From positions 1 to 26,137 of the IMG/VR virus record IMGVR_UViG_3300038421_000048: a DNA stretch of 26,137 nucleotides; one strand, given 5' to 3'. The stretch's first letter is position 1. Each line of letters begins with the position of its first letter. The notes below the pieces were generated by a model. That model was not told the origin of the DNA. It did not search any database and saw only the letters and a list, made by a program, of their open reading frames with translations. This document shows positions 1-12,610 of this stretch, piece by piece. A program made the position numbers and the translations under genes. The stretch comes from a virus.

Positions 1-1
1 C

Positions 2-436
2 AGTGCCATGCAGATCACCAAGGCCGCCAGCCTTGCCGATCAAGCCGTGGTGCGCTCACTGTATGAGTTGACCCAGTACCGTGAGGTCAAGAAGCAGAAA
101 GTGTTCATCAGCGAGGGCAAGCCGATCAAGGTCAAGTACAAGGAAACCTTGGAGCCCGAGATGAACGCCATCAAATTCTGGTTGATGAACCGCGACCCGA
201 TGACCTGGGGCAAAGACCCCGAAGGTGGCGGTGGCGGCGATAGCAAGCTACCGAGCCAGATCAATATCCACATGATAAGGGAGATGCCCAGCGACCAACT
301 GAAGAACACAATCGCCCTTCTACAATCCATCATGACACCCAACACCGGCTTGAAGCGGCTGGATGCCGTGGAAGCCGAAATAGTACCCGAAGAGGAACCT
401 ACCGATGGCGGACAAACTGAAAGTGTGCATTCGTAA
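2..436 (+). CDS. Terminase small subunit, C-terminal part (5' partial)
   Basis: The frame is open to the left edge, so the gene probably starts upstream; the first ATG in view is at 8. About 142 residues are visible. The segment reading IKFWLMNRDPMTWGKDP (about residues 55-71 from that ATG) matches the 'FWLKNR.P..W' block near the C-terminal half of many phage small terminases, where it follows a charged beta-hairpin stretch like the YREVKKQKVFISEGKPIKVK seen here. The expected N-terminal helix-turn-helix would lie outside the window. Small terminases bind pac/cos DNA and load the large subunit. The large terminase gene follows after one tiny ORF, which supports the call. The tail of this gene overlaps the next ORF by 32 nt in another frame. 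Confidence 0.72.
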   Translation, partial: SAMQITKAASLADQAVVRSLYELTQYREVKKQKVFISEGKPIKVKYKETLEPEMNAIKFWLMNRDPMTWGKDPEGGGGGDSKLPSQINIHMIREMPSDQLKNTIALLQSIMTPNTGLKRLDAVEAEIVPEEEPTDGGQTESVHS

Positions 437-584
437 GAATGCTATGTTCAACGGCGAAGAGGTCGTCGACACCCTGACCGAGGTTCTTATCGCTGTGAAG
501 CGCGGCAACGATGTCACGGTCGAGTTCTTGGATGAGGCTGATCCTCGTCCTACGTACATCCAACTCAACGAGGGGCCCAAATAG
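405..584 (+). CDS. Small hypothetical protein between terS and terL
   Basis: A 59-residue ORF starts at ATG 405 inside the end of the small terminase frame and ends with TAG at 582-584. The G of this stop is also the first base of the GTG start of the large terminase, a TAGTG junction typical of translational coupling. The protein begins MADKLKVCIRKNAMFNGEEV and is mixed charged with no membrane segment or motif I recognise. Without it there would be an unexplained 147-nt gap between terS and terL, and the tight overlaps on both sides argue that it is translated. Function unknown. Confidence 0.6.
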   Translation: MADKLKVCIRKNAMFNGEEVVDTLTEVLIAVKRGNDVTVEFLDEADPRPTYIQLNEGPK

Positions 585-2458
585 TGTCGCGCCCGCGTCC
601 ACGCCTGAGCGAGCCGTCAGTAGATGACGGCTTTCTCGGCAAAGCCGATCCTGTGCTCATTCAAGCCCTACTTGCCGAGGCAGAAGCAGAGCTTGCCTTC
701 CGTGAAGGTCGAAGCACCGAACGCTTCGATCCACCCGAGCCACATCCACTCACCAAGGAGGAGTGGGCCACTCGTGATTACGTGATGGTGCAGCGATGGC
801 GGCATCGCCAGCTTGCCATGCTCAATGAAGACCCTAATCTGATCGAGCACCTGTACGGCAGTGACCCGATCAAGTTTATCTGTCACTGGCTCGACGTGTA
901 CGAGCCCCGCAATGCCGGCAAGAACCTGCCGACGCGCATGCCCTTCATTCTGTTCAAACGGCAGGAAGAGCTTGTACAGTTCTATCATGCCTGTTTGATC
1001 GGTGACGGCAACGGCCTTGTCGAGAAATCACGCGACATGGGCGCGACGTGGTGCGGGGTAGGCTACTCCATCTGGCTTTGGCGGTTCATTCCAGGCACGG
1101 CGGTGGGATGGGGCAGTGCCAAATCGGAAAAGCTGGACCGTCTCGGTGACGCCGGCTCGATATTCGAGAAGATCAGGCTGGCCATTCGCGGCTTGCCCAA
1201 GGTGTTTCTGCCGCCTAAATTCAAGGATGACTGGTTGATGCACAAGAGGGTGATCAACCACTACAACGGCTGCAGCATTACGGGAGATATCGGCGACGAT
1301 ATCGGCCGTGGTGGTCGGACCAGAATATACTTCGTGGACGAAGCCGCCTACGTTGAGCGGCCCGAGGCAATGGAAGGCGCGCTGTCAGAAAACACGCGTT
1401 GTCAGATCCACATCTCCTCGGTGTCGGGCCCCGGCACTGTGTTCCATCGCACCCGGCAATCGGGTGCCGAGTGGACGCCGGGCAAGCCTATCCACAAGGA
1501 CCGCCACAATGTATTCTTGATGGATTGGTCTGACCACCCTGAGAAAAGCGCCGAGTGGTTGGCCCAGCGCAAGAAGAGCTTCGATGATCGTGGCCTCGGT
1601 CACGTGTTCGCTCGTGAGATCGAGCGCAACTACGCCGCTGCCCAAGAAGGCTCGATAATCAAACCCGAGTGGGTGGATGCTGCCTTCGACGCACACAAGA
1701 AGCTCAACCGAGTGGCAGAGTTCGAGAGCTGGGGAAAACTGGTTGCCGGCCTAGACGTCGGCGACGAGACCGGCGACGCCAACGCCGGCACCATCATGAA
1801 GGGCCGGCTGGTCAAGCGCCTGCAGATGTGGAAGGTGCGTGATACCGCCATCACCGCCCGCAAGATGATCGATATCTGCAGGCCGTTCGCTGCCAACTCG
1901 GCAGACCCTCTCGAGCTCCAGTACGACTGCATCGGCCTCGGCGCTGGTATCAAGGCCGAGACCAACCGGCTGCGCGACGAGAACCTGATGCCGCCGAACA
2001 TCGTGCTAGTTCCATGGAACGCGGGCCTCACCGGTGTCGCCCTTGTCGGCCCGCATGAGCGCGTGGTCAGGGATGATCCGAAGTCGCCAGCAAACAAGGA
2101 TTTCTACGGCACACTGAAGGCCCAGGCTTGGTGGAACATTCGTACTCTGCTCTACAACACATGGCGGGCAGTGACGCAGGGCGAGGCCTTCCCAATCGAC
2201 CAGTTGATCGCCTTCGATTGCGAGGCAATCCTCAGCATTAGGGAGGTCGATACCACCATTCTCCACAAGATCAAGGATGAACTTTCCCAGGTAGTAAGCA
2301 CCTTGACAACGAAGATGAAGGTGAATATCAACAAGGCACCAACGGGGACCCAATCACCGAACCTAGCCGACAGCTTGGTGATGGCACAGTGGCCGGTCCC
2401 GAATACGGAGCCGGGGTTGTTCGGATACTTCGGGGCACCCATCGTGGTGAAGGGGTAA
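584..2458 (+). CDS. Terminase large subunit (packaging ATPase/nuclease)
   Basis: This 624-residue protein is the DNA-packaging motor. The N-terminal ATPase shows a Walker-A-like loop at about 148-156 (KSRDMGATW, the variant form common in terminases), Walker B at 246-253 (TRIYFVDE, with D252 and E253) and a coupling-motif region around 276-285 (HISSVSGPGT). The C-terminal RNase H-like nuclease has the expected acidic residues: D391 in AGLDVG, D448 in QYDCIGLG and D596 in NLADSLVMAQW. The start is GTG at 584, sharing one base with the preceding stop. The order terS-terL-portal is the classical packaging module. The portal SD (AAGGGG, 2450-2455) lies in the last codons of this gene. Confidence 0.95.
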   Translation: MSRPRPRLSEPSVDDGFLGKADPVLIQALLAEAEAELAFREGRSTERFDPPEPHPLTKEEWATRDYVMVQRWRHRQLAMLNEDPNLIEHLYGSDPIKFICHWLDVYEPRNAGKNLPTRMPFILFKRQEELVQFYHACLIGDGNGLVEKSRDMGATWCGVGYSIWLWRFIPGTAVGWGSAKSEKLDRLGDAGSIFEKIRLAIRGLPKVFLPPKFKDDWLMHKRVINHYNGCSITGDIGDDIGRGGRTRIYFVDEAAYVERPEAMEGALSENTRCQIHISSVSGPGTVFHRTRQSGAEWTPGKPIHKDRHNVFLMDWSDHPEKSAEWLAQRKKSFDDRGLGHVFAREIERNYAAAQEGSIIKPEWVDAAFDAHKKLNRVAEFESWGKLVAGLDVGDETGDANAGTIMKGRLVKRLQMWKVRDTAITARKMIDICRPFAANSADPLELQYDCIGLGAGIKAETNRLRDENLMPPNIVLVPWNAGLTGVALVGPHERVVRDDPKSPANKDFYGTLKAQAWWNIRTLLYNTWRAVTQGEAFPIDQLIAFDCEAILSIREVDTTILHKIKDELSQVVSTLTTKMKVNINKAPTGTQSPNLADSLVMAQWPVPNTEPGLFGYFGAPIVVKG

Positions 2459-2461
2459 GAA

Positions 2462-4054
2462 ATGGCTGTGCAATCCATTCCCGCAGCGCCGGTTGTGGTC
2501 GAGGGTAGCCGGGGCGGTTGGTTCCGTCATGTTTATAACAGCACTCTTGGAAAGGCTGTCGGCCTGCTTGGTCCCCGCAGCCGCCTACAGGTCGGGCAGG
2601 CCCCGCCGGTTCCACCCGTCCAACCGTTCCAGGAGCAGGGCTCTGGCGGCACCGCCGTGTGGGGCGGCGTTGTTCAGGTCAAGGATCGCTCACCTAAGTG
2701 GATTGGTCAGCAGCGTTGGCAGACTGCCTCAGACCTCGCGGTCAATATCAGCGTGGTCGGCGCCGGCATCCATTATTTCCTCAACCTGATCTCGCACCCC
2801 AAGTGGAAGGCGAAGCCAAGCGATCTCACCGACAAGGAGTCCGTCGAGCTTGCCGAGTTCGTGGATCATGTCATCAACGACATGATCTACCCTTGGGAGA
2901 GCATCGTTCGCAGCGCCGGCATGTACCGGTTCCATGGGTTCAGCATCCAGGAGTGGATCGCTAAGAAGATCACCACCGGCAAATATGCCGGTCGTATCGG
3001 CTTCGAGAATATCGAAGTCAGACCTCAACACACCATCGAGCTCTGGGGTGTCAGCGACAAGGGCAGCGTGCTTGGCGTGTGGCAGCGCAATCCACAGACA
3101 TCGCAGCTGCAAGGGTTACCCCGAGGAAAGCTGGTATATATCACAGAGGACCTCCTTACCGATAGCCCAGAGGGCCTCGGGGTTCTTCGTCACTTGGCTG
3201 AGCCGTACAACCGGCTGCTGCGCCTGCAGCAACTCGAGATGCGTGCCTACGAGCGAGACCTCAGAGGTATCCCGGTCGGCCGGGCCCCGATTGCTGAGAT
3301 CAATAAGGCGGTCAAGGCCAACCTGCTTTCACAGGAAGACGCCAATCGCCTCGTGGGGGTGATAGAGAATATCGTTCAGCTTCAGGTGAAAATGCAGGAT
3401 ACCGGCGTGGTGCTCGACAGCCAGCCGTTCCTCAGCACCACGGCCGGCGGCCCGGCGGTCAGCGCCGAGAAGATGTGGAGCCTGGAGCTGCTTAATGGCC
3501 CGGCCCTCGGTCTTGCTGAGATCAGCCAAGCCATGGATCGTATTCAGCGCGAGATGGCGCGCATCATGGGCATCGAGCATCTGATGATCGGTGACCAGGG
3601 CGGCAACCGCGCTGTGGCTCAGGACAAGAGCCGCAACGTCTACCTGATAGCAAGCTCGGTGTTGCGGTTGCTAAGGTCGTGCATGCAGAAGGATGTCGTC
3701 GACGTCCTCTGGCTCATGAATGGCTTGCCCGAGGACAAGAAGCCGAAGCTCGAAAGCGAGGATATAAGCCCGAAGGACGTGGTCGAGATCACCACCGCCC
3801 TCGCTCGCATGTCGCAGAGTGGTGCCACGCTCGCACCCGATGATCCGGTCGTGAACGACATACGCGATCTGCTTGGCGTCAGCCGGGCCAAGCCCATCGA
3901 CCCGACCGCCCTGCTTGGACCAGATGGCAACCCGCTCAGCGCCAAGCCCAATGGGGCAATGCCGGGCGAGGCCAACACGACGGATGAAGATCAACGCCTG
4001 CCTCGGGTCACCGACGTGAACCGTGATCCAGGTATGAACGGAGCCGTGATGTGA
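2462..4054 (+). CDS. Portal protein
   Basis: A 530-residue protein starting at ATG 2462, with the SD AAGGGG overlapping the terL stop region. It fits a portal in size and place directly after terL. Supporting segments are an early helical region (SVVGAGIHYFLNLISHPKW), a middle block YERDLRGIPVGRAPIAEI, and a late block GLAEISQAMDRIQREMARIMGIEHLMIG followed by RAVAQDKSRN, resembling portals related to the DUF935/Mu gp29 group (subfamily assignment tentative). Portals form the dodecameric ring at the capsid vertex through which DNA enters and to which the connector binds. The C-terminal 50 residues are low-complexity and acidic. The last ATG overlaps the GTG start of the following methyltransferase. 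Confidence 0.85.
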   Translation: MAVQSIPAAPVVVEGSRGGWFRHVYNSTLGKAVGLLGPRSRLQVGQAPPVPPVQPFQEQGSGGTAVWGGVVQVKDRSPKWIGQQRWQTASDLAVNISVVGAGIHYFLNLISHPKWKAKPSDLTDKESVELAEFVDHVINDMIYPWESIVRSAGMYRFHGFSIQEWIAKKITTGKYAGRIGFENIEVRPQHTIELWGVSDKGSVLGVWQRNPQTSQLQGLPRGKLVYITEDLLTDSPEGLGVLRHLAEPYNRLLRLQQLEMRAYERDLRGIPVGRAPIAEINKAVKANLLSQEDANRLVGVIENIVQLQVKMQDTGVVLDSQPFLSTTAGGPAVSAEKMWSLELLNGPALGLAEISQAMDRIQREMARIMGIEHLMIGDQGGNRAVAQDKSRNVYLIASSVLRLLRSCMQKDVVDVLWLMNGLPEDKKPKLESEDISPKDVVEITTALARMSQSGATLAPDDPVVNDIRDLLGVSRAKPIDPTALLGPDGNPLSAKPNGAMPGEANTTDEDQRLPRVTDVNRDPGMNGAVM

Positions 4055-4617
4055 GCATCCACCACATCGACCAGTTGGTCTCGCCATATTATCGCGGCCT
4101 GCTCAACCAGATGCACGAAAACTTCGAGTGGGGTATCGGCGGGCCGCGACACATCAAGAACTTCATCGATCATCTGAACAGCCTGCCCATTGCCACCTTT
4201 CTTGATTACGGCTGTGGCAAGGGCAGGCTCAAGCACAGCCTGCTTGCCGTTGATCCCAGCTTGCAGATCGGGATGTTCGACCCTGGCAATCCCAAGCTCG
4301 ACACGCTGCCGGCGCCGGCGGATTTCGTGGTGGCGCTTAGTTGCCTTGAGAACATCGAGCCTGACCGCGTCGTCAATGTTCTAAGCCATATCGATAGCCT
4401 CATGAAGATCGGGGGCTATTTCCACATCACCACCCGCTCCGGCTACAAGAACGATCTGCCCGACGGTCGCAACGAACATCTGTCGGTACACGAGCCCGAA
4501 TGGTGGCTCGACATGATCGGCGGCTTCCACCAATTCGAGTGGCGCATCTCAAAGCACAATGCTATACCGGGCAAGGCGCTGCAGGTCTGGCTTACGAAGC
4601 CAGGCTACAATCGGTAG
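4051..4617 (+). CDS. Class I SAM-dependent methyltransferase
   Basis: A 188-residue protein starting at GTG 4051, overlapping the portal stop by four bases (ATGTGA), which implies translational coupling. Motif I of the Rossmann methyltransferase fold is clear at about 50-60 (FLDYGCGKGRL). A later strand ADFVVALSCLENIEPD (about 92-107) corresponds to the motif IV region, and MKIGGYFHITTRSG to the strand after it. The acceptor cannot be read from the sequence. It is followed by an FkbM-type methyltransferase and, further on, three glycosyltransferases, so a sugar or virion-protein acceptor is possible. DNA methylation is less likely because no DPPY/NPPF-type catalytic motif is visible. Confidence 0.8.
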   Translation: MSIHHIDQLVSPYYRGLLNQMHENFEWGIGGPRHIKNFIDHLNSLPIATFLDYGCGKGRLKHSLLAVDPSLQIGMFDPGNPKLDTLPAPADFVVALSCLENIEPDRVVNVLSHIDSLMKIGGYFHITTRSGYKNDLPDGRNEHLSVHEPEWWLDMIGGFHQFEWRISKHNAIPGKALQVWLTKPGYNR

Positions 4618-4624
4618 ATAGGGT

Positions 4625-5335
4625 ATGACTACCACCGTTCTAGAAAAGTCCGGTCTAATCGCCCCCGCTTTCGGGCGGGGTGATAAATTCTTCGAACCCG
4701 TGGGCGGTCCCCACGACCTACCACTCCATAATCGTGATCAGGCCGTCGCTTGCGTGCAGGCATGCTCGGAGCGGCTGCGGGTGGCAATAGATGGTGGAGC
4801 TTACTGTGGCACCTGGGGCATGCAGCTACTCCCAAATTTTGAGAAGATTTTCTTGTTCGAGCCCGTAGAAGAAAACTTTAACTGCTGTCGTTTGAATATG
4901 GTGTGGGCTAGAGATAAGATGCCGAAGGCGGCCTCTGCCACTACTAGGAGGCTTGCACTTAGTTCTAGCGTTGGTACGAGGCCCATGTTTAGCCCCGGCA
5001 CTTACAAGAACGGTGTTCGTGCAAGGAAGGCTTATGCATGGAAAGTGGGTGAGGGTAATCCTGAAGATACTATTACTGTTCCTTCAACCACCATTGACAA
5101 CCTTAACTTAGAGGTGCTTGATCTGCTAAAGCTCGACGTTGAAGGTCATGAGTACGAGGTTCTCCAAGGGGCTCGCGTCACGATACTGAAATGCCGGCCG
5201 GTTATCATGATCGAGGAAAAGCTGGATTCCGAGTACAGGGCGACGGCTTTTCTTGAGCACTTGGGTATGGTATACAAGAAGTCGATTGAACAGGATCGAC
5301 TGTTCGTATGGCCTAAACAACGGGGACTTAGATGA
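4625..5335 (+). CDS. FkbM-family methyltransferase
   Basis: A 236-residue protein with the hallmarks of FkbM methyltransferases (Methyltransf_21): SAM-binding motif I at about 53-62 (VAIDGGAYCG), the acidic LFEPVEENF at 77-85, the family signature TIDNL...LDLLKLDVEGHEYEVLQGA at about 156-183, and RPVIMIEEK at 191-199. Known family members O-methylate sugars or polyketides (for example rhizobial NoeI on a fucose residue). It is clearly related to the FkbM gene on the opposite strand at 10367-11221. By eye the DNA is more AT-rich (a 90-nt sample near 4801 is about 46% GC) than the surrounding terminase and portal genes, suggesting separate acquisition. No strong SD is visible. It ends in an ATGA overlap with the next gene. 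Confidence 0.85.
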   Translation: MTTTVLEKSGLIAPAFGRGDKFFEPVGGPHDLPLHNRDQAVACVQACSERLRVAIDGGAYCGTWGMQLLPNFEKIFLFEPVEENFNCCRLNMVWARDKMPKAASATTRRLALSSSVGTRPMFSPGTYKNGVRARKAYAWKVGEGNPEDTITVPSTTIDNLNLEVLDLLKLDVEGHEYEVLQGARVTILKCRPVIMIEEKLDSEYRATAFLEHLGMVYKKSIEQDRLFVWPKQRGLR

Positions 5336-5724
5336 CCGCCTACACAAAGTATCCGGTTGGCAACAAGCAATTCGTGATCGAGTGGGACTTGTCGGTAAAC
5401 CAGAGTGAGGATCAAGGTGACGCCTTCGAGGCCATCGACTGTGAACTGGTGTCTATCTCGGCCTTGACGCTGGTGTCTTCGGGGGATGTCAGCTCCCAGC
5501 TTCGGTACACCAACCAGTCGAATTTCCCTGGAAGTCCGGGGGTGGCTGGGAACTATACCCTCGACCTTGAGATCGCGGGCGCGGGGTATTTCATGCCCTG
5601 GCCCGAGCCCGCGCAGTTTGTGAGGACTATACCTCAAGCGCGGTACTACGCGCCCAGACTTGAGGGGCCCGATGTAGGCGCCATTGCCACTGCCAAGGTG
5701 GCATTGTTGTTCAGGACTCTGTAA
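5332..5724 (+). CDS. Hypothetical protein, possibly virion-associated
   Basis: A 130-residue protein starting at ATG 5332, four-base ATGA overlap with the FkbM gene. I do not recognise a family. It reads as mainly beta-strand: alternating hydrophobic residues, no signal peptide, no membrane segment, with stretches such as AISALTLVSSGDVSSQLRY (within 451-510) and a C-terminal IATAKVALLFRTL. Its place between the portal end of the operon and a head-tail connector suggests a small structural or decoration protein, but that is positional inference only. It is followed by a strong hairpin at 5735-5762. Confidence 0.6.
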   Translation: MTAYTKYPVGNKQFVIEWDLSVNQSEDQGDAFEAIDCELVSISALTLVSSGDVSSQLRYTNQSNFPGSPGVAGNYTLDLEIAGAGYFMPWPEPAQFVRTIPQARYYAPRLEGPDVGAIATAKVALLFRTL

Positions 5725-5734
5725 GGCATCGCTA

Positions 5735-5762
5735 CTCCCCAGCGCCTGAGTGTGCTGGGGAG
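5735..5762 (+). terminator. Intergenic hairpin, possible terminator or attenuator
   Basis: CTCCCCAGC (5735-5743) pairs perfectly with GCTGGGGAG (5754-5762), a nine-pair GC-rich stem with a ten-base loop. It sits ten bases after the stop of the preceding gene and 23 bases before the connector start. No U-run follows (AGACGTATCG), so it is not a textbook rho-independent terminator. Partial termination, RNA stabilisation or processing are alternatives. Confidence 0.5.
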
Positions 5763-5785
5763 ACGTATCGCTAGTGGGGTGGTAA

Positions 5786-6358
5786 ATGTCTCAGATCGTA
5801 CTCGAAAACGTCTCTGACCCGTTCGATGTCTACGCCAATCTCGAAGAGGCCGACTACTACCTTGCCGGCAATATCGCCAGTTCGAACTGGTTCTCGGCGA
5901 CTGAGAACACGCGCAAGCAAGCCCTGATTACGGCGACCCGTATCTTCAACCGGGAGTGCTGGCTCGGCGACCCGAGCGCGGGCGAGAGCGGCCAGCCGCT
6001 CGCGTGGCCTCGGGACAATACCGGCATCGATGGCGTTGAGGATGGTACAACTCCAGAGGATATCACCTTCGGGGCCATCGAGTTGGCTATGGCTCTGGTC
6101 GATGGCAGCACGGTGCAGACCAATGCGGCACCCGGCCAGCAAGGCATCGAGACCCTGAAGGCGGGCAGCGTGCAGATCACGTACTTCCGATCGGCCCAGT
6201 CGCCGCTCAACGAGTTCGGCCGGTATCCGTTGCCGGTGCAGGAGCTGGTGGGCAAGTACCTCTGCGGCAGCCAATCTGCTGTGTTTGGCCTTGCCTCTGG
6301 CACCACGGGGGATGATAGCGTGACCAGCGATGACTTCGGCTTTGATGATGGGCTCTAG
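5786..6358 (+). CDS. Head-tail connector, DnaT_2-like (adaptor)
   Basis: A 190-residue protein starting at ATG 5786 after GGGGTGG. The N-terminal pattern 'Y..LEEADYYLAG....SNWFSA....RKQALITATRIFNRECWLG' followed by QPLAWPRDNTGIDGVE is the signature of the family annotated as putative DnaT-like / head-tail connector (DnaT_2), whose members sit beside portal and head-closure genes and are thought to form the adaptor ring under the portal. The middle contains ITFGAIELAMALVDG, and the later SVQITYFRSAQSPLNEFGRYPLPVQELVGKYL is also typical. The acidic C-terminal tail (TGDDSVTSDDFGFDDGL) is probably disordered. The gene lies in the portal operon while the tail genes are on the other strand. Confidence 0.75.
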   Translation: MSQIVLENVSDPFDVYANLEEADYYLAGNIASSNWFSATENTRKQALITATRIFNRECWLGDPSAGESGQPLAWPRDNTGIDGVEDGTTPEDITFGAIELAMALVDGSTVQTNAAPGQQGIETLKAGSVQITYFRSAQSPLNEFGRYPLPVQELVGKYLCGSQSAVFGLASGTTGDDSVTSDDFGFDDGL

Positions 6359-6375
6359 GAGAGGATAGGGTTGCC

Positions 6376-6939
6376 ATGACCAAGCATGGCTGGCTATACA
6401 AAGTTCTGACTGAAATAGGCGTTCGCATCGTTGGGGCATCTGGTAATCCGGTTGCTGACGAGCCCCATAGCCGTATCCACCAGGGTAAGATGTTCAGTGC
6501 TTGCCATCTGGTTGAGGGTGTGGCTAACGATGCCTCGATCCTGTTGGCCATCACTACCCCAGCCGATGACTATCCGCATTTGAGCGTGTTCCCAAGCTGT
6601 TCGGGCTTGGCATACTTCACAATCTTTGAAGATGTTTTGTTTTCTGGTGGCTCAGTGGTTCCTGTTTTTAATCACAAGCGATATAGCGACAATGAATTTG
6701 GGGGTACGGTCATCCATACTCCGACTGTGTTGACTGTTGGTGCACAATTGGCCGAGTTTCTGATGCCCGGTGGTGAGCGCAATTCGGCAGTAGGCAGCGC
6801 CCCTGATTTTGGATTGGAGTGGATATTGAATAACTCAACCACCTATCTAATGCAACTCACAAACAAAAGCGGCCAAGCCGCCTCCTTGCACATGGGCATC
6901 GCCTTCTACTCGGCGCCTTGGTTAGCCGATGCTACATAA
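6376..6939 (+). CDS. Predicted virion structural protein (beta-rich)
   Basis: A 187-residue protein with SD-like AGGAGAGGATAGGG upstream of ATG 6376. The layout resembles a recurrent phage structural family of about 150-200 residues: an opening IHQGKMFSACHLVEGVANDAS, a mid 'FNHKRYSDNEFGGTVIHTPTV', then LMPGGERNSAVG and a closing WILNNSTTYLMQLTNKSGQ and GIAFYSAPW. No signal peptide or membrane helix is seen, and the strand-rich pattern suggests a jelly-roll or beta-sandwich. The codon use is more AT-rich than the connector gene next door. It could be a head decoration or fibre protein; I cannot distinguish these. It could also be an acceptor for the glycosyltransferases encoded just downstream, but this is only proximity. 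Confidence 0.65.
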   Translation: MTKHGWLYKVLTEIGVRIVGASGNPVADEPHSRIHQGKMFSACHLVEGVANDASILLAITTPADDYPHLSVFPSCSGLAYFTIFEDVLFSGGSVVPVFNHKRYSDNEFGGTVIHTPTVLTVGAQLAEFLMPGGERNSAVGSAPDFGLEWILNNSTTYLMQLTNKSGQAASLHMGIAFYSAPWLADAT

Positions 6940-6952
6940 GGATAGCTCACAG

Positions 6953-7138
6953 GTGCCACTCAATCTCAACGAACTCGACACCAAGTCCTCCGATTACCTG
7001 GAGGAATTGCAAGCGCACTACCGTGCACTCAGGCGAGGTGTAAGCCGGTATGATCTGAAGAGGTGCGACGACGCACTCAAGGCAGTACGACAAGCCTTGC
7101 GTCGGCGGCGTCAGGGGATAACGAGTGAGCCAGAGTAA
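6953..7138 (+). CDS. Small helical hypothetical protein
   Basis: About 61 residues from GTG 6953. An in-frame ATG at 6929 would give 69 residues but lacks an SD and overlaps the previous gene, whereas AAGGA at 6938-6942 is placed for the GTG. The sequence is highly charged and predicted helical (DYLEELQAHYRALRRGVSRY, then ALKAVRQALRRRRQG). It faintly recalls the size and helical character of gpW-like head-joining proteins, but the similarity is too weak to name it. It is read in the same direction as the connector genes. Confidence 0.5.
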   Translation: MPLNLNELDTKSSDYLEELQAHYRALRRGVSRYDLKRCDDALKAVRQALRRRRQGITSEPE

Positions 7139-7165
7139 TTGCTTCATGCTAGATGACTTGGCATC

Positions 7166-7180
7166 GCCCGAATATCGGGC
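7166..7180 (+). other. Short hairpin before glycosyltransferase start
   Basis: GCCCGA (7166-7171) and TCGGGC (7175-7180) form a perfect six-pair stem with an ATA loop. It ends three bases before the AAGAGGT SD (7184-7190) of the GTG start at 7195. It might affect ribosome loading, or supports the view that 7139-7194 is non-coding leader. Confidence 0.35.
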
Positions 7181-7194
7181 AGCAAGAGGTAGTC

Positions 7195-8025
7195 GTGAAA
7201 GTCAGCGTTAACATCCTGAAGGGTAATGGCAGTGCAGAGAAGACCTGTGCAGCTATGGCCAAGGGTATTGCACGATGCGGCGATGACGTGGCCGTCCGTA
7301 CCGATCTCGACAATCGGATGGAAGGCTTTGACGTTGCTATACTATGGGGCTTCGTCGCCAGTTGTCAGAACGTTATTAAGTCGTGCCGAACAGCTGGAAT
7401 ACCTTTTCTATTCTTTGATATGGGTTATTGGGCTCGCGATAAAGGCTTCTTTAAGGTAGCCTGCAACGACCGTCATCCTGACAAATACTTCATGCGCCGG
7501 CCCAAGCCGGCTGACCGCTTCAACCGGCTCGGTCTTACCATCGAGCCGTGGCAGAGGAACACGACCGGCTACATCCTGCTAGCTGGTATGAGTGGCAAGG
7601 CATCATGGTCATGGGGGTGGGGAAATGAAGACTATGAGAGGCGAACTATCGCAGAGCTGCGAAAATACACCGACCGGCCTATCGTCTACAGGCCCAAGCC
7701 CAGTTGGAGCGCCGCCAAGCCGCTCTCTGGTGCACGCTTTGATGTCAAGACTCCACTCCGCACAGCCTTGGCCGAAGCTCATTGCGTGGTCAGCCATCAC
7801 AGCAACGTCGGCTGCGATGCTCTTCTGGCTGGCGTCCCTACATTCAACAAACTAGGGGCGGCCTCGATCCTTGGCCCATATGAACTACGCAAGATCGAAA
7901 AGCCCAACTACCCCGAGGGGAGGGAGCAGTGGGCCCACAATCTTGCGTATTGCCAGTGGTCCCTGGCCGAGATGACCACCGGCGAGTGTTGGGACTTCTT
8001 CAAGCGCGAAAACTTCATGAGGTAA
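7195..8025 (+). CDS. GT-B-like glycosyltransferase, paralogue 1
   Basis: 276 residues from GTG 7195, chosen because AAGAGGT lies five bases upstream and the protein then opens MKVSVNILKGNGS, a normal first Rossmann strand and glycine loop. An ATG at 7153 would add 14 unconvincing residues. C-terminal half: RPIVYRPKPSW (161-171), then CVVSHHSNVGCDALLAGVPTF (about 197-217), the 'H-S-N-x-x-x-x-A-L-x-x-G-V-P' block of GT-B enzymes and capsule/glycerophosphate transferase relatives that contacts the nucleotide sugar, then LAYCQWSLAEMTTGECWDFFK near the end. The same three blocks occur in the next gene, so the two are tandem paralogues. Donor and acceptor are unknown. Cytoplasmic, no signal or membrane segment. 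Confidence 0.7.
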   Translation: MKVSVNILKGNGSAEKTCAAMAKGIARCGDDVAVRTDLDNRMEGFDVAILWGFVASCQNVIKSCRTAGIPFLFFDMGYWARDKGFFKVACNDRHPDKYFMRRPKPADRFNRLGLTIEPWQRNTTGYILLAGMSGKASWSWGWGNEDYERRTIAELRKYTDRPIVYRPKPSWSAAKPLSGARFDVKTPLRTALAEAHCVVSHHSNVGCDALLAGVPTFNKLGAASILGPYELRKIEKPNYPEGREQWAHNLAYCQWSLAEMTTGECWDFFKRENFMR

Positions 8026-8028
8026 GCA

Positions 8029-8919
8029 ATGAGAATAACCCTCTATCTATCGACCAATGAGCGTGAGCAGGAAATTGGTCGAGCCCTCTATGTCGGCTGC
8101 AAGCAGCACGGCGTATCAGTCAAGCTCCTGTACAGGTCGGACTTCTGGCAATCCAACCTCGACAAGCAAACAGATATCATCGGGTTTATCGGTGTCAAGT
8201 CGCGACGGTTCTTCAATGCCGCCCTCGCCGAAGGCAAGACTACCATGATCATCGACAAGGGGTACTTCGGTCGAGGGGAGTACTACCGCATCTCGGTCGG
8301 CGGCTACCAGCCACCCTACCTGCATCGGATGGACAATGACCCGAGCCGGATGGTCGGCTTGGGCGTCATGCTCCATCCGTTGTATGACGGAGGCCAGCCC
8401 GGCGATCACGTCATGTACGTGGGGAGCAGTGAGAAGTACTGCCTATTCCACGAACTTGGCAGTTGCAACGACTACGCCCGTAAGATCGTTACCGAGATCA
8501 AGAAGTATTGGCAGGGCCCGATCATCTACCGGCCGAAGCCTTCTTGGTGGGCCAAGCCGAAGCCGGGTGAGGCCCGGGATAACCTAAAGGACCTGGGAGT
8601 TTACTTTTCTGGTCCCGGTGAAGCCGCTGGAGCTTACTTTGTCAAGAAGCTACGGCAGTGCAAGGCCATCGTTACCCACGGCAGCAATGGTGCCGTCGAG
8701 GCTCTGGCCAGGGGCGTGCCCACTATCCTGACCTCGCCGGTGGGCGTGAGCCCAGTGCACCATCTGTGCAGTCATGGTATCAATGAGATTACCAATCCGT
8801 ACTGGCCGCCGGCCGAGGAGCGCATGAAAACGCTCTCTCAACTCGCATGGTGCCAGTTCAGTGTCAAGGAAATGGCCTCGGGCTTTGCCTGGGAGAACAT
8901 CAAACGGTGGCTGCCTTGA
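8029..8919 (+). CDS. GT-B-like glycosyltransferase, paralogue 2
   Basis: 296 residues from ATG 8029, with SD GAGGTAAG overlapping the previous stop. It shares with the preceding gene the blocks GPIIYRPKPSW (163-173), CKAIVTHGSNGAVEALARGVPTIL (about 211-234) and LAWCQFSVKEMASGFAWENIKRW (272-294), in the same order and spacing, so it is a diverged tandem copy. The N-terminal half (IGFIGVKSRRFFNAALAEGKTTMIIDKGYFG) differs more, as expected if the acceptor domain changed. It is presumed to transfer a sugar or sugar-like group from a nucleotide donor. The following glycosyltransferase starts within its last 13 bases. Confidence 0.7.
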   Translation: MRITLYLSTNEREQEIGRALYVGCKQHGVSVKLLYRSDFWQSNLDKQTDIIGFIGVKSRRFFNAALAEGKTTMIIDKGYFGRGEYYRISVGGYQPPYLHRMDNDPSRMVGLGVMLHPLYDGGQPGDHVMYVGSSEKYCLFHELGSCNDYARKIVTEIKKYWQGPIIYRPKPSWWAKPKPGEARDNLKDLGVYFSGPGEAAGAYFVKKLRQCKAIVTHGSNGAVEALARGVPTILTSPVGVSPVHHLCSHGINEITNPYWPPAEERMKTLSQLAWCQFSVKEMASGFAWENIKRWLP

Positions 8920-9836
8920 TCCCTATCCACGTCATTACCAGTTGCAGCCGGGCGGGTTTCGAGAAGTACGGGCGAAAGGCCATCGAAACCTTGCACCGGT
9001 TCTGGCCTCAGGATATCCCCCTGCATTTGGTCAGTGAGGACCTACTTGCCTTGTCGCCTGAGATCGGCGATCACCGCAAGGTGATCTACTACAACCTGCA
9101 TCAGTCAAGCGTGTGGGCCAACGAATTCCACGTCAAGCACAAGGACAACCCCCGTGCTCACGGGCGCGGCGCCGGCTTCAGCGTCAAGCACCAGGACCAG
9201 AAGAAGGGTTACAGCTTTAGGCACGACGCCTACAAGTTCAGCAAGAAGGTGTTTGCCATCGAGCTTGTCGCCCGCTCGATCGGATCAGGTAGGTTGATCT
9301 GGCTCGACGCCGATACGGTGACTTTCGCCGGTGTTCCCCGCGATATGTTGGAGCGCCTGCCGCCAGCCGAGTATCCGATAGCCTGCCTGGATCGCCCTGG
9401 CTATCATAGCGAGTGCGGGTTTATCGGGTATAATCTCGATCATCCCGATGCGATGCGGTTCATTACGGAGTTTGCCGCCCTGTATTGGGGCGGTCGGGTG
9501 TTCGAGCTCCAAGAATGGCATGATAGCTGGGTCTTCGACTGGCTGCGCAAGTCGCTTGGTATCCATGCCTATGGGATACCCCATCGCAATCCCAGCCACC
9601 CGTTCGTGCATAGTGAGCTAGGGCGGTACATGGATCACATGAAGGGTGCCCGCAAGGATCACGGCGTCAGCCACGATCACCCGATGTGTGTCCGTGAAGG
9701 TAAGACGATGAGGATCGTCGCTGGCCACGTGCCCGAGCCCGAGAAGGGCCGGCGCCCACCGCAGCGGGGCATGTCGTGGACCGGCTCAGGCTGGCGCCAA
9801 GCCCGGTCTAACAGGGTGAAGCCCAGGCGGCTGTAG
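8907..9836 (+). CDS. GT-A-like glycosyltransferase with DxD motif
   Basis: 309 residues from GTG 8907, with GGGAG at 8891-8895 as SD. A longer frame from 8847 would lie wholly inside the previous gene. The opening PIHVITSCSRAGFEKYGRKAI is a typical first strand of nucleotide-diphospho-sugar transferases. GRLIWLDADTVTF (128-140) carries the DxD metal/nucleotide motif (D134, D136), and later CLDRPGYHSECGFIGYNLDHPDA and LQEWHDSWVFDWL are consistent with the acceptor side. The last 60 residues are basic and Pro/Arg-rich (EKGRRPPQRGMS, ARSNRVKPRRL). It is the last gene of the rightward operon and ends 27 bases before the junction palindrome. Substrates are not readable from sequence. Confidence 0.75.
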   Translation: MAALIPIHVITSCSRAGFEKYGRKAIETLHRFWPQDIPLHLVSEDLLALSPEIGDHRKVIYYNLHQSSVWANEFHVKHKDNPRAHGRGAGFSVKHQDQKKGYSFRHDAYKFSKKVFAIELVARSIGSGRLIWLDADTVTFAGVPRDMLERLPPAEYPIACLDRPGYHSECGFIGYNLDHPDAMRFITEFAALYWGGRVFELQEWHDSWVFDWLRKSLGIHAYGIPHRNPSHPFVHSELGRYMDHMKGARKDHGVSHDHPMCVREGKTMRIVAGHVPEPEKGRRPPQRGMSWTGSGWRQARSNRVKPRRL

Positions 9837-9862
9837 TCCTCACAGATATTTTCGGGGGCCTC

Positions 9863-9884
9863 GGGGGTAGGGTACCCTACCCCC
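9863..9884. terminator. Perfect 22-nt palindrome at convergent junction
   Basis: Two 11-base arms, GGGGGTAGGGT (9863-9873) and ACCCTACCCCC (9874-9884), are exact inverse complements with no spacer. It lies 27 bases after the last + gene and 50 bases before the end of the last - gene, so it can form the same hairpin in both transcripts and would suit a bidirectional terminator. U-runs are absent on either side. A protein-binding site is the alternative. Confidence 0.5.
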
Positions 9885-9903
9885 TAACCCTACCATCAAA
9901 GCG

Positions 9904-9922
9904 AGGACGCTTATTACGTCCT
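9904..9922. terminator. Second hairpin in the convergent junction
   Basis: AGGACG (9904-9909) pairs with CGTCCT (9917-9922) across a seven-base AT-rich loop. In the leftward transcript it is followed by CGCUUUG, a weak U-tract. Together with the 22-nt palindrome it makes the 97-base gap between the converging operons a likely termination zone. Confidence 0.4.
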
Positions 9923-9933
9923 GGAATTGACCC

Positions 9934-10353
9934 TTACTGTGGGGGATTGTAGGGGACCGGCGGGTTGAACCCGACGGGCTCGGGGTGCCGGTCCAGTTGG
10001 TCCTCGGGCGTCTGAAGCACCCTCTTGTAGATCAGCGCGCACACACCGAGCCCGATCAACCAGATGAAGCTGACTTGCCCATGCTTCCATGGGTCATAGA
10101 CGCCGATCATGCTCCAGACGGTCGTCATCAGCAACGTGGTTGTGGTGAGAATAAATAGCCAGATGGCAATTGGCCACACCAGAGCATAGGCCACCTCCTC
10201 GAAGGTGCGTGGCGGTGCCCTGGTCTCACCAATGTTCAGGCGGTCCCGTTCCTGTTGCTCTTGGGCGTGCCGCATAAAGTCGGGCACGTAGCCTTGGCCT
10301 CGGCTGCCCACGTGAGGCTCTTCCCCACGGTACCGGGAGTGCTGTGCAGTCAT
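9934..10353 (-). CDS. Membrane protein with two transmembrane helices
   Basis: A 139-residue protein starting at ATG 10353 behind a strong SD (GGAGGT, five bases from the ATG) that overlaps the end of the FkbM gene. Hydrophilic N-terminal 50 residues, predicted helices at about 57-78 (ALVWPIAIWLFILTTTTLLM) and 95-109 (SFIWLIGLGVCALIY), then a proline-rich tail ending PVPYNPPQ. No family recognised. It is the last gene of the leftward operon. It might be an accessory lysis or inner-membrane protein, or act with the FkbM methyltransferase at the membrane. Both are guesses. Confidence 0.65.
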   Translation of the reverse strand: MTAQHSRYRGEEPHVGSRGQGYVPDFMRHAQEQQERDRLNIGETRAPPRTFEEVAYALVWPIAIWLFILTTTTLLMTTVWSMIGVYDPWKHGQVSFIWLIGLGVCALIYKRVLQTPEDQLDRHPEPVGFNPPVPYNPPQ

Positions 10354-10366
10354 GATAGACCTCCGC

Positions 10367-11221
10367 TCAGGGTTGATCGGTCGGGTTATTGTTATTGCTT
10401 GTTCCCTCAGCCCCCACTACCGGTGGCAGCACGAGGTCTGCCTCCGGTATCCAATTGACCAAGCCCCGTTCCCTGGGTACCAGGTGCAGGTGCTCGGGCC
10501 AAACCCAGATCATGTCGTACTGATAGCGCCAGACCTTGATCATGCCCAGTTCCATCAGCCACTTGCTCGATAGGCGGGCCTCGTCGAACTTTTCCTCTAT
10601 GAGGATAACCGGCCGGCAAGCTCGTATCGTATGCTCTCCCCCTTTGAGGGCTTGTAGTTCGTGGCCCTCAATGTCGAGCTTGATAAGGTCCAAGGTCTGC
10701 AGCTCCAATGTGTCGATTGTGCGGCATTTGACCTCGACGGGGCCATCATCCCTGATCATCCATGAGAAGCTCTTGTTGTTATTTGGCTTGCCTCCCATGC
10801 GTAGCGTACCCACGTGATCGCTGAGTGCGGAACAGTAGCGTTGGAAGCTAGCAGCGGTGTTCGGGTGAAACTTCTCGAAGTTGAGGTGCAGCCTGACATT
10901 CTCTTCGAGAGCATCGAAGGTGGTGGGTAGTGGCTCGAACGCATGTACGTGCTGGAAGTACGCGTGGAATTGCAAGGCCAGTAACCCGACGTGCGCGCCG
11001 GCGTCGATCATGAGGCAGCGGCCGGGGCAGACTGTCAGCGCCGCCATTACGGCATTGCGTTGGTAGCCGGGCACGCCCTCGAAGATCTCACCCTTGGCAA
11101 ACTCTGAGGGGTCAGTGTTGGGTATCCATACTCCGTTGACGAACTTGTATTCGAAGCCTTGGACGTTGCACCGGTACTGGCCTTTGTGCTGATAGGTAGG
11201 CAGGCCGCGAATGCCGATCAT
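10367..11221 (-). CDS. FkbM-family methyltransferase (second copy)
   Basis: 284 residues from ATG 11221. This start has SD GGGAG eight bases upstream. The open frame reaches a GTG at 11314, but that extension would run through a strong hairpin (11243-11280). Family blocks: motif I CLMIDAGAHVGLLALQFH (69-86), HAFEPLPTTFDALEENV (93-109), TIDTLELQTLDLIKLDIEGH (168-187) and CRPVILIEEK (202-211), ending with IWVWPEH. The last four blocks are close to those of the + strand FkbM gene at 4625-5335, marking paralogues of different length: this copy has an extra N-terminal region (YRCNVQGFEYKFVNGVWIP) and C-terminal tail. Likely an O-methyltransferase acting on a glycan; acceptor unknown. Confidence 0.85.
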   Translation of the reverse strand: MIGIRGLPTYQHKGQYRCNVQGFEYKFVNGVWIPNTDPSEFAKGEIFEGVPGYQRNAVMAALTVCPGRCLMIDAGAHVGLLALQFHAYFQHVHAFEPLPTTFDALEENVRLHLNFEKFHPNTAASFQRYCSALSDHVGTLRMGGKPNNNKSFSWMIRDDGPVEVKCRTIDTLELQTLDLIKLDIEGHELQALKGGEHTIRACRPVILIEEKFDEARLSSKWLMELGMIKVWRYQYDMIWVWPEHLHLVPRERGLVNWIPEADLVLPPVVGAEGTSNNNNPTDQP

Positions 11222-11242
11222 CTTTGGTGCTCCCAAAATGGT

Positions 11243-11280
11243 AAGGCCCCGCAACTGGTCCATACCGGTCGCGGGGCCTT
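11243..11280 (-). terminator. Hairpin between coiled-coil membrane gene and FkbM gene
   Basis: AAGGCCCCGC (11243-11252) pairs with GCGGGGCCTT (11271-11280), ten perfect pairs, and the 18-base loop contains a further six-pair stem closed by CCAT. In the leftward transcript it is followed by ACCAUUUUGGG, so a short U-run lies four bases after the stem. It probably terminates or attenuates the upstream transcript and makes a start above it for the methyltransferase unlikely. Confidence 0.6.
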
Positions 11281-11388
11281 CCCCCTCCAAGCTAGGTGTC
11301 CCCAGTCGTCGCACTAAGGGGCTGACAATATCCCCGCTCCAGCCTGGAAGTGATAGTCATAGCAGGTCCGCTTATGCTCGGCAAGGGC

Positions 11389-11736
11389 CTATCGTCGACC
11401 CTTATCCGTTCGATTGAGCACAGCGTCGAGTTTCAGCTTCATCTCATCGAACCGCGCCTCGAACAGATTCTTGTTGTCGCCGACCTCAGCAAGTATCTTC
11501 TTGGTCTGGTCGTTGAACTGGTTGATTTGCTTTGTCAGGTCCTCGAACACTGTGAGATCAGTGGGCGGGGCCATCTGCTCGATCATCAGTGTGAGGCGGC
11601 GAATTTCGTTCTTGGTGTGGGCAACGCTGAACACTGCACCCGTTAAGGCAACTGTCGTGGAAATCACCAAGGCGCCCAGCGCAATGTAGAACGCCTTGCG
11701 AAAGTCGGTTACTCCATCGTACACGGCTCGCCTCAT
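11389..11736 (-). CDS. Small membrane protein with coiled coil
   Basis: A 115-residue protein starting at ATG 11736. One hydrophobic segment lies at about 16-38 (FYIALGALVISTTVALTGAVFSV), followed by a charged, helical stretch (TKNEIRRLTLMIEQ..., EDLTKQINQFNDQTKKILAE, EARFDEMKLKLDAVLN) typical of a coiled coil. The topology (N-in, long helical C-terminus outside) resembles i-spanins and other phage envelope proteins, but a better spanin pair is present upstream. The upstream region holds a CACGGGGGC leader motif shared with two other leftward genes and, before that, the outer-membrane gene's terminator, so it may start its own transcript. Confidence 0.65.
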   Translation of the reverse strand: MRRAVYDGVTDFRKAFYIALGALVISTTVALTGAVFSVAHTKNEIRRLTLMIEQMAPPTDLTVFEDLTKQINQFNDQTKKILAEVGDNKNLFEARFDEMKLKLDAVLNRTDKGRR

Positions 11737-11743
11737 TTGGTTT

Positions 11744-11764
11744 GCCCCCGTGCCCCTAACATAC
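11744..11764 (-). promoter_or_regulatory. Leader with GTATGTTAGG and CACGGGGGC motifs
   Basis: Read leftward, GTATGTTAGG (11764-11755) is followed immediately by the block GGGCACGGGGGC (11755-11744), and the ATG comes eight bases later at 11736. The first 10-mer recurs at 12620-12611 ahead of the outer-membrane gene; the second block recurs ahead of ATG 14229 and, in shorter form, ahead of ATG 21117. It may be a shared ribosome-binding leader or part of a phage promoter. No good -35/-10 pair is evident. Confidence 0.35.
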
Positions 11765-11780
11765 CCAGTTTCTAAACATG

Positions 11781-11826
11781 AAAAAGCCCCTGGGATGACG
11801 TAGGTGCGGTCTACGTTCCCAGGGGC
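11781..11826 (-). terminator. Rho-independent terminator of the outer-membrane gene
   Basis: Read leftward, GCCCCTGGGA (11826-11817) pairs with TCCCAGGGGC (11795-11786), ten perfect pairs. Inside, ACGTAG pairs with CTACGT around a seven-base loop, leaving a two-base bulge. Five U follow at once (A-run 11781-11785 on the + strand). This is the clearest intrinsic terminator in the window, 35 bases beyond the stop of the outer-membrane gene. Confidence 0.85.
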
Positions 11827-11860
11827 CCTCAGCCCACGCCGGTAGGGACGTGGACCAAGC

Positions 11861-12561
11861 TCAGTTGAACAAGCCGGCCCCGAGCGCCACGTTGAGGCGC
11901 ACGCCGAACACGTGCTCCTGCACCCTGGCGTTGATGCTGGTGTCCGAGAAGTTGTTGAACTCGTGATCGGACATGTTCCACTCGAAGGCGACGCTGGTGT
12001 AGTTGTTCAGCTTGTGCTCCAAGCCGAGGGTGTACCGGAAGCCATCGTCGGTCGCTGACAAGCCCCCTGGGAGCCGGTCCAGTCGACCGCCAGCTTGGCC
12101 CGCTGCCACGACACGTCGCCATAGAGCATGCTGCGGCCCGAGAGTGCGAGGCCGAGGCCGCCACCGCCGTACCACTCCGGCGTGAACTTGCCGCTGGCGT
12201 GGAACGCGCCGTCGTTCATGTCGAGCGTGGGCTCAGTGCTGCCGAAGTTGTAGCCGGCGTGGACCCGAAGAACGAACGGCGTGTTGGGCAGATGGTAGTT
12301 GATGCCTGCCTTCACGTCGCCACGCCAGCCGTCGCCGGAAACTCCGTCGAAGCTGAAGCCCTCCTCGACCGACGAGAGCTTGGTGTCGGCGACACCCCAG
12401 CCGCCCATGCCGCCAAAGTAGATGCTGGTCCAGTTGATCTTCTCGACCTTGCCGGGTTCGGCGATCCTCTTCATCCACGAAGGCCCGTCGGCAAGCGCGG
12501 CGCTGGTCAGCATCGCACCGCCTACGACGGCGAGCAGGATTGCATTCCAAAGTCGTTTCAT
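11861..12561 (-). CDS. Outer-membrane beta-barrel protein, interrupted by a -1 frameshift
   Basis: Start ATG 12561 has SD GGAG nine bases upstream and opens with a signal peptide, MKRLWNAILLAVVGGAMLTS, with a likely cleavage at ALA|DGPSW. The body has alternating aromatic beta-strands (SIYFGGMGGWGVADTKLS, VLRVHAGYNFGS, WYGGGGLGLALSGRSMLYGDVSW) like small Omp25/opacity-type eight-stranded porin-like barrels. This frame goes on to a stop at 12007 without a barrel end. The -1 frame supplies it: LSATDDGFRYTLGLEHKL, YTSVAFEWNMSDHEF, and VFGVRLNVALGAGLFN as the final strand, ending at 11861. The frames join at a GGGGG run (12063-12067), giving 233 residues. The DNA is more GC-rich than its neighbours, and the gene has its own terminator: a moron-like gene. 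Sequencing error, mutation or programmed slippage are all possible. Confidence 0.75.
12063..12067 (-). other. G5 run where the outer-membrane gene changes frame
   Basis: On the coding strand the context is TCC CAG GGG GCT TGT. A slip of one base back on the G-run gives GGG GGC TTG TCA GCG and enters the frame encoding the rest of the barrel. One extra G would restore the frame equally well, so an indel in the homopolymer is the simplest explanation. Confidence 0.65.
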
Positions 12562-12610
12562 TGCTTTCTTCTCCAGTCGGTTGCGTTTGACGCAGCACAA
12601 ACCCTAGTGA

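What the first reader, a model, noticed from the sequence alone, without database searches (positions are those of the whole stretch)
4051..9836. Glycosyltransferase and methyltransferase island inside the packaging/connector operon
Two methyltransferases (one FkbM-type) directly follow the portal gene, and two GT-B-like and one GT-A-like glycosyltransferases follow the connector and a probable virion protein. They are all on one strand with short gaps or overlaps. Late co-expression with virion genes points to glycosylation and O-methylation of a virion component, with the 6376-6939 product or a tail protein as candidate acceptor. Modification of host surface glycan is the alternative. I do not know a described phage system with this exact combination.
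Basis: partly seen in the sequence, partly recalled or inferred. Interest (0 to 1): 0.72.

Follow-up and report, generated by a model that had tools for sequence, protein, structure and literature searches.

The report
Phage sugar-coating gene cassette
This bacterial virus carries, among the genes that build its particle, a set of enzymes predicted to build and methylate a small sugar chain, most likely on its own particle; the same enzyme set recurs in dozens of unrelated phages and includes two glycosyltransferase families that standard protein libraries do not name.

Summary
Between portal (2462-4054) and 9836, on one strand, lie a class I methyltransferase, an FkbM methyltransferase, two paralogous GT-B glycosyltransferases and one GT-A glycosyltransferase, with gaps of -13 to +61 nt around a connector and small proteins. 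The GT-A gene probably starts at 8907, not 8847. A second FkbM gene (10367-11314, minus) and a small protein (5332-5724) belong to the same set. Confident models confirm both folds. The GT-B fold is nearest to retaining Kdo transferases (KpsC, WbbB, KrkA), but their catalytic motifs are replaced, so it looks like an unnamed family. The GT-A is nearest to GT6/GT8 enzymes and the PBCV-1 capsid glycosyltransferase. The gene set recurs in about 70 viral contigs, isolated phages and prophages, usually beside head and connector genes. Hydroxymethylase-type DNA modification and GtrA-type O-antigen conversion are disfavoured. Best reading: glycan assembly and O-methyl capping on a virion protein; no acceptor is shown. 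A functional precedent exists: Corndog-type mycobacteriophages carry an O-methyltransferase and glycosyltransferases after the portal, but the enzymes are unrelated. So: a new variant of a known kind.

The parts
2462..4054 (+). Portal protein (Mu-type); its stop overlaps the start of the first methyltransferase by 4 nt
   Evidence: PF06074 E 3.7e-11; overlap
4051..4617 (+). Class I SAM methyltransferase, predicted sugar O-methyltransferase
   Evidence: phrog_24759 E 5e-14; Methyltransf_23 just under its cut-off; relatives in 20 of 67 GT-B-seeded cassette loci; motif PDGRNxHL shared with L003 copies
4625..5335 (+). FkbM-type methyltransferase, predicted sugar O-methyltransferase
   Evidence: PF05050 E 2e-18, 67.6 bits against cut-off 22.7; phrog_8156 E 1.4e-21
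5332..5724 (+). Small protein of unknown family, linked to the cassette; candidate dedicated acceptor or cassette component
   Evidence: No Pfam or PHROG match; 44% identical homologue next to FkbM in L003; found in 5 distinct loci, all with the cassette
5786..6358 (+). Head-tail adaptor Ad1 (connector)
   Evidence: phrog_477 E 6.2e-22
6376..6939 (+).
   Evidence: phrog_5335 E 1.1e-8; relative in phage MEP301 without cassette genes nearby; no relative found in viral contigs
6929..7138 (+). Small ORF of 69 aa, unknown
   Evidence: ORF; no confident match
7153..8025 (+). GT-B glycosyltransferase, paralogue 1
   Evidence: 32% identical to 8029-8919; same profile family
8029..8919 (+). GT-B glycosyltransferase, paralogue 2; invariant D76, R107, G132, Y167, K170, E281
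   Evidence: AlphaFold pLDDT 94.4; nearest folds KpsC/WbbB/KrkA, Z 14.8 to 11.7; alignment A5
8907..9836 (+). GT-A glycosyltransferase, GTG start at 8907, DXD motif D134-x-D136
   Evidence: AlphaFold pLDDT 86.2; nearest folds GT8-like GlyE, BoGT6a, PBCV-1 A064R domain 1, Z 14 to 15; DXD in 44 of 44 aligned sequences
9934..10353 (-). Small protein with hydrophobic segments; homologue sits next to the cassette in L003; role unknown
   Evidence: no Pfam match
10367..11314 (-). Second FkbM-type methyltransferase, 32% identical to 4625-5335
   Evidence: PF05050 E 1.5e-19; phrog_8156 E 4.3e-32; alignment A2

Best explanation
A phage-encoded virion-glycosylation cassette. During late expression the phage makes, together with portal and connector proteins, soluble enzymes that build a short glycan on a virion protein in the cytoplasm: the GT-A enzyme (GT6/GT8-like fold, probably a UDP-sugar donor) and the two GT-B paralogues add sugars one after another, and one class I and two FkbM methyltransferases O-methylate the sugars, capping the chain. 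Shown here: gene order, enzyme folds, conserved motifs, recurrence of the set, location next to head and tail genes in many relatives. Inferred: late co-expression, order of action, O-methylation of sugar, and that the acceptor is a virion protein. Which protein is the acceptor is not known; 5332-5724 is the best candidate by linkage, the major capsid or tail-tube protein (the glycosylated ones in the mycobacteriophage precedent) the best by analogy. No capsid gene was identified in this fragment.
For: Enzyme classes by HMM and structure. Tight co-directional packing with the portal and connector, with overlaps at several gene borders. The set recurs: of 67 dereplicated loci seeded with the GT-B family, 58 have 2-4 GT-B copies, 49 the GT-A family, 44 an FkbM or class I methyltransferase; reciprocally 8 of 11 GT-A-seeded loci hold the GT-B family, the other 3 being contigs of 4-7 kb. 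Flanking genes in these contigs match head-tail adaptors, major head proteins, head proteases, portals and major tail proteins. Isolated phages carry related sets: podovirus MW202713 directly upstream of the terminase, Caulobacter phage CcrBL9 between tail-fibre genes and lysozyme, Pelagibacter phage Mosig. Accessory genes are sugar-related: DegT/LegC/PseC-type aminotransferase, sulfotransferase, heptosyltransferase-like GT9, sialyltransferase-like protein. No strongly hydrophobic segment in the enzymes. Precedents: Corndog-type O-methyltransferase plus glycosyltransferases between portal and protease (PMC4351075) in phages with glycosylated virions (as cited in PMC12363180); PBCV-1, whose own GT domains and two methyltransferases build and methylate its capsid glycan (PMC9614988).
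Against: No virion of any carrier has been examined here; no acceptor is identified. In Pelagibacter phage Mosig the cassette lies among nucleotide-metabolism genes, not virion genes. The flank counts overlap between families and have no control set. Loci were found by conserved peptide patterns, so frequencies are biased. Late co-transcription is inferred from layout only.
Confidence: 0.7

Rival explanations
1. Host-surface modification: the enzymes alter the host's LPS or capsule so that the infected or lysogenic cell no longer adsorbs competing phages.
For: Glycosyltransferase clusters in jumbo cyanophages have been interpreted this way (PMC7824862); a glycosyltransferase in a Sinorhizobium prophage likewise (PMC5537653). 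The GT-B fold is nearest to capsule and O-antigen enzymes KpsC and WbbB. Mosig carries the cassette away from virion genes. Some carriers lie in bacterial genomes as prophages.
Against: Cassette sits mainly beside head and connector genes. GtrA found in 0 of 39 carrier records, while the same search finds it in 7 of 14 control genomes. The enzymes have no strongly hydrophobic segments.
Confidence: 0.15
2. DNA hypermodification: the glycosyltransferases decorate hydroxymethylated or otherwise modified bases of the phage genome.
For: Phage glycosylation of DNA bases is known (for example a pentose on cytosine in Shewanella phage Thanatos, PMC12838424, title and abstract).
Against: No thymidylate-synthase-type hydroxymethylase (PF00303) in 35 of 39 carrier records, including the complete genomes of MW202713, Mosig and CcrBL9. 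Location beside head genes rather than nucleotide genes in most carriers.
Confidence: 0.05
3. A narrower form of the best explanation: the cassette glycosylates only a receptor-binding or tail-fibre protein, changing host range rather than coating the particle (its share lies within the 0.7 given above).
For: In CcrBL9 the cassette follows the host-specificity and tail-fibre genes; major tail protein and tape measure genes are frequent neighbours.
Against: Most annotated flanks are head, connector and protease genes rather than fibre genes.
Confidence: 0.2

Closest known systems
Mycobacteriophage virion glycosylation (Corndog gp35-38, Che8 gp108-110)
   Same: O-methyltransferase followed by glycosyltransferases directly after the portal gene, with a 4-nt overlap of portal and methyltransferase in Wildflower as in this window; enzymes encoded among virion genes in Corndog; capsid and tail-tube proteins reported glycosylated (PMC4351075; Freeman 2023 as cited in PMC12363180).
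   Different: No detectable sequence homology between those enzymes and the window's four families (hmmsearch E >= 0.01, hhalign probability at most 11.2%); there a TylF-type methyltransferase and GT2/GT25-like enzymes, here FkbM plus class I methyltransferases, GT-B and GT-A enzymes. Che8's genes lie at the genome's right end, not after the portal.
PBCV-1 (chlorovirus) capsid N-glycan enzymes A064R and A061L
   Same: Virus-encoded glycosyltransferases plus two methyltransferases that cap a capsid glycan (PMC9614988); A064R domain 1 is among the nearest folds of the window's GT-A (Z 14.3, 177 residues, rmsd 2.9).
   Different: Eukaryotic algal virus, fused multidomain enzyme, no significant sequence similarity (E 0.56).
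Retaining Kdo transferases KpsC (GT107), WbbB (GT99), KrkA (GT140)
   Same: Nearest solved folds of the window's GT-B; all 15 top rows, Z 14.8 to 11.7 against 11.3 or less for the rest; RPKP aligns with the region of their (K/R)XHP motif.
   Different: Catalytic QXXXD appears replaced by GxSxK and the motif histidine by lysine (motifs from PMC10148158 and PMC12887879), so donor and mechanism are expected to differ.
GT6/GT8 glycosyltransferases (BoGT6a, GlyE, LARGE1)
   Same: Nearest folds of the window's GT-A, Z 14 to 15; DXD motif conserved.
   Different: No Pfam match for the window protein; only one of 44 family members matches any Pfam model at E <= 0.01, DUF6492.

Membership tests
Phage virion glycosylation system of the Corndog type | Glycosyltransferase genes within the virion-assembly operon next to portal, protease or capsid | tested here: met
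   Window layout; flanks in relatives; Wildflower order for comparison
Phage virion glycosylation system of the Corndog type | A sugar-type O-methyltransferase in the same cluster | tested here: met
   FkbM PF05050 and class I methyltransferase; the substrate itself is not shown
Phage virion glycosylation system of the Corndog type | Enzymes homologous to Corndog gp35-38 or Che8 gp108-110 | tested here: not met
   hmmsearch and hhalign against enzymes of Wildflower (same layout as Corndog), Che8 and QBert give no significant match; the Corndog record itself is not held
Phage virion glycosylation system of the Corndog type | Virion proteins carry a glycan | not testable with these tools
   Needs mass spectrometry of virions
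Retaining Kdo transferases (GT99, GT107, GT140) | Shared GT-B fold | tested here: met
   Z 14.8 to 11.7, 235-251 residues, rmsd 3.7-4.9
Retaining Kdo transferases (GT99, GT107, GT140) | QXXXD motif with nucleophilic Asp | tested here: not met
   Equivalent segment by strand order is G132-x-S134-x-K136; K in 69 of 71. Equivalence rests on secondary structure, not on a superposition
Retaining Kdo transferases (GT99, GT107, GT140) | (K/R)XHP CMP-binding motif | tested here: not met
   RPKP in its place; K170 in 71 of 71
FkbM methyltransferases (PF05050) | Match above the curated cut-off | tested here: met
   67.6 and 71.2 bits against 22.7
GT6/GT8-type GT-A glycosyltransferases | GT-A fold with DXD | tested here: met
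GT6/GT8-type GT-A glycosyltransferases | Sequence match to the family profile | tested here: inconclusive
   No Pfam match; fold similarity only
GtrABC serotype conversion | GtrA flippase (PF04138) | tested here: not met
   0 of 39 carrier records; several records are fragments, and the window itself was not among the records searched
Hydroxymethylated and glycosylated phage DNA | dCMP or dUMP hydroxymethylase of the PF00303 family | tested here: not met
   Absent in 35 of 39 carrier records, including three complete genomes; the window itself is a fragment and was not searched

The most novel reading that the evidence does not exclude
A mobile, phage-dedicated protein-glycosylation machine found in many unrelated tailed phages, built from two undescribed glycosyltransferase families (a KpsC-fold GT-B with altered catalytic motifs and a GT6/GT8-like GT-A) plus methyltransferases, in some lineages with its own small acceptor protein (5332-5724), coating virions with diversified O-methylated oligosaccharides.
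Probability: 0.35. Interest if true: 0.68.

Novelty: new variant of a known kind. Interest (0 to 1): 0.55.

Why it matters
Virion glycosylation by phages is documented in few systems, mainly mycobacteriophages, where it is reported to shield particles from antibodies. A conserved cassette with non-homologous enzymes in dozens of unrelated phages would make it a common, repeatedly invented trait of environmental phages and would add two glycosyltransferase families. It would make testable what phage particle glycans are for outside animal hosts: protection from adsorption to debris, grazers or defence factors, or tuning of host range. Isolated carriers (CcrBL9 on Caulobacter, a Mesorhizobium prophage) make the test practical.

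Tried and rejected
Megablast of 1-12000 against phage records: no match. First GT-B scan with the single window protein: one relative only, hence the alignment-based scan. Relatives of 6376-6939 and of the portal in viral contigs: none, so insertion of the island could not be shown against a near relative; the genes tested after the portal in terminase relatives Pam3, RHph_I72 and P106B match no cassette profile. Kdo-transferase membership of the GT-B was considered and rejected on motifs. An FAD-oxidoreductase annotation after the portal in RHph_I72 was checked as a possible cassette gene: no match to cassette profiles. DNA hypermodification and GtrA-type conversion were tested and disfavoured. 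Freeman et al. 2023 is not in the library, so it is cited second-hand; the Corndog and Myrna records are not in the collections. Literature searches found no description of this cassette, but most subscription papers are not covered.
Full report
Observation. The window is a 26,137-base virus record without a near DNA match among named phages for its first 12 kb. Its terminase large subunit is 46-48% identical to those of Pseudanabaena phage Pam3 and Rhizobium phages, and the next gene is a Mu-type portal. From the portal stop to 9836, on one strand, lie: a class I methyltransferase (4051), an FkbM methyltransferase (4625), a small protein (5332), head-tail adaptor Ad1 (5786), a protein of phrog_5335 (6376), a 69-aa ORF (6929), two paralogous GT-B proteins (7153, 8029) and a GT-A protein. 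Gaps are -13 to +61 nt. The GT-A ORF is listed from 8847, but homology begins near residue 21-29 in most relatives, so I use GTG 8907. A second FkbM gene lies at 10367-11314 on the other strand. GC at third positions differs within the island (FkbM 4625 and 6376: 0.54; the others 0.60-0.77), which suggests piecemeal assembly (inference).

What the glycosyltransferases are. The window proteins have no confident Pfam or PHROG match; across family members, 27 of 71 GT-Bs match DUF6716 and one of 44 GT-As matches DUF6492 at E <= 0.01. With 71 sequences the GT-B model reaches pLDDT 94.4. Its best solved matches are all retaining Kdo transferases: KpsC modules, WbbB and KrkA fill the top 15 rows, Z 14.8 to 11.7, ahead of UDP-GlcNAc 2-epimerases at 11.3 with larger rmsd; the step from KrkA to the epimerases is under 1, so only the KpsC and WbbB rows stand clear. 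A profile comparison with Capsule_synth proteins, single pair, gives probability 78%, E 1.8e-5, and aligns RPKP with their K-x-HP region. But the hallmarks of those enzymes, a QXXXD nucleophile and (K/R)XHP (PMC10148158, PMC12887879), are replaced by GxSxK and RPKP across the family. I therefore call it a KpsC-fold GT-B family of unknown donor; the two conserved lysines may bind the phosphates of an NDP-sugar (inference). The GT-A model (pLDDT 86.2 with a poorly predicted tail after residue 272) is nearest to GlyE, BoGT6a and alpha-1,3-galactosyltransferase, LARGE1, and PBCV-1 A064R domain 1, all tied at Z 14-15; DXD is invariant in 44 of 44.

The cassette is real and widespread. Alignment-based scanning of viral contigs found 92 GT-B relatives. 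After removing near-identical contigs by hand, 67 GT-B-seeded loci remain: 58 hold two to four GT-B copies, 49 the GT-A family, 44 an FkbM or class I methyltransferase, 35 both GT-A and a methyltransferase. Seeding with the GT-A alone gives the GT-B in 8 of 11 loci, the rest being contigs of 4-7 kb. Other recurrent members over 80 loci are an FAD-dependent oxidoreductase-like protein (32), a sialyltransferase-like or MptE-like protein (26) and an SDR-like protein (22); the window lacks these. Isolated phages MW202713, Mosig and CcrBL9 carry versions of it, as do a Mesorhizobium prophage and a contig binned with Candidatus Methanoperedens. Only 5 of 385 genomes of the class sampled around the Mesorhizobium strain have the GT-B at E <= 1e-10, consistent with a family carried by phages and other mobile elements.

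Where it sits. Of 142 flanking proteins, the most frequent PHROG matches are head-tail adaptors (phrog_442, 13; phrog_40, 10), major head proteins (phrog_617, 11), major tail protein (phrog_1407, 8), head morphogenesis and proteases (5 each). Counts overlap between related families and there is no control set, so this is a tendency, not a statistic. Exception: in Mosig the cassette lies near ribonucleotide reductase and RuvC genes.

Mechanism. Best-supported reading: sequential sugar addition and O-methyl capping on a virion protein by soluble enzymes made with the assembly proteins. Steps shown: folds, motifs, linkage, location. Steps inferred: acceptor class, donor sugars, order, that methyl goes on sugar. 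Host-surface modification is less likely (no GtrA in 39 carrier records; no strongly hydrophobic segments in the enzymes; flanks are mostly virion genes). DNA modification is unlikely (no PF00303 enzyme in 35 of 39 records, among them three complete genomes).

Acceptor. It has one cultured relative, in phage MEP301, without cassette genes in the stretch read, and none in viral contigs by the pattern search. In contrast 5332-5724 is found in five distinct loci, always with cassette genes. It may be a dedicated acceptor or a cassette component; it was not folded. No capsid gene was identified in this fragment.

Comparison with the known. Corndog carries an O-methyltransferase, two glycosyltransferases and a putative N-acetylglucosaminyltransferase between portal and protease, and its authors suggested capsid glycan and methyl modification (PMC4351075); glycosylated virion proteins were later reported for Che8, Corndog and Myrna (Freeman et al. 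2023, cited in PMC12363180; original not readable here). Wildflower, a phage with the same layout, shows portal, O-methyltransferase (4-nt overlap), three glycosyltransferases, protease, major capsid, much like the window. None of the enzymes tested is detectably homologous to the window's families, so this looks like convergence on one solution. PBCV-1 is a second precedent for a virus building and doubly methylating its own capsid glycan (PMC9614988).

Verdict. What is new is the breadth and conservation of a non-homologous cassette and its two unnamed glycosyltransferase families.

Noticed in passing
window 11861-12600 (-): Outer-membrane beta-barrel-like protein with a signal peptide, split over two frames (12007-12600 and 11861-12175): a frameshift or sequencing error.
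   Followed up: no
window 24406-24990 (+): Lone HNH-endonuclease-like ORF in a stretch of low GC on the opposite strand inside the minus-strand tail operon, probably a homing endonuclease.
   Followed up: no
window 17212-20229 (-): 1005-aa probable tail protein with a long glycine-rich C-terminal region.
   Followed up: no
L104 3081-11412: A contig binned with the archaeon Candidatus Methanoperedens carries the cassette next to an Ad1 connector: an archaeal virus or a binning error.
   Followed up: partly
L005 8668-14502 (Pelagibacter phage Mosig): Cassette with two methyltransferases, GT-A, GT8-like, GT-B copies and a sulfotransferase, suggesting sulfated glycans in a marine phage.
   Followed up: partly
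BFVD hits of the GT-B model of window 8029-8919: Tetraselmis virus 1 encodes several proteins with a similar GT-B fold (TM up to 0.72), some annotated as capsule polysaccharide biosynthesis proteins.
   Followed up: no
L147 (G257:C1:263000-279000): A 1.6-Mb genome carries GT-B, FkbM and class I methyltransferase genes near an ORF whose N-terminus resembles a tyrosine integrase.
   Followed up: no
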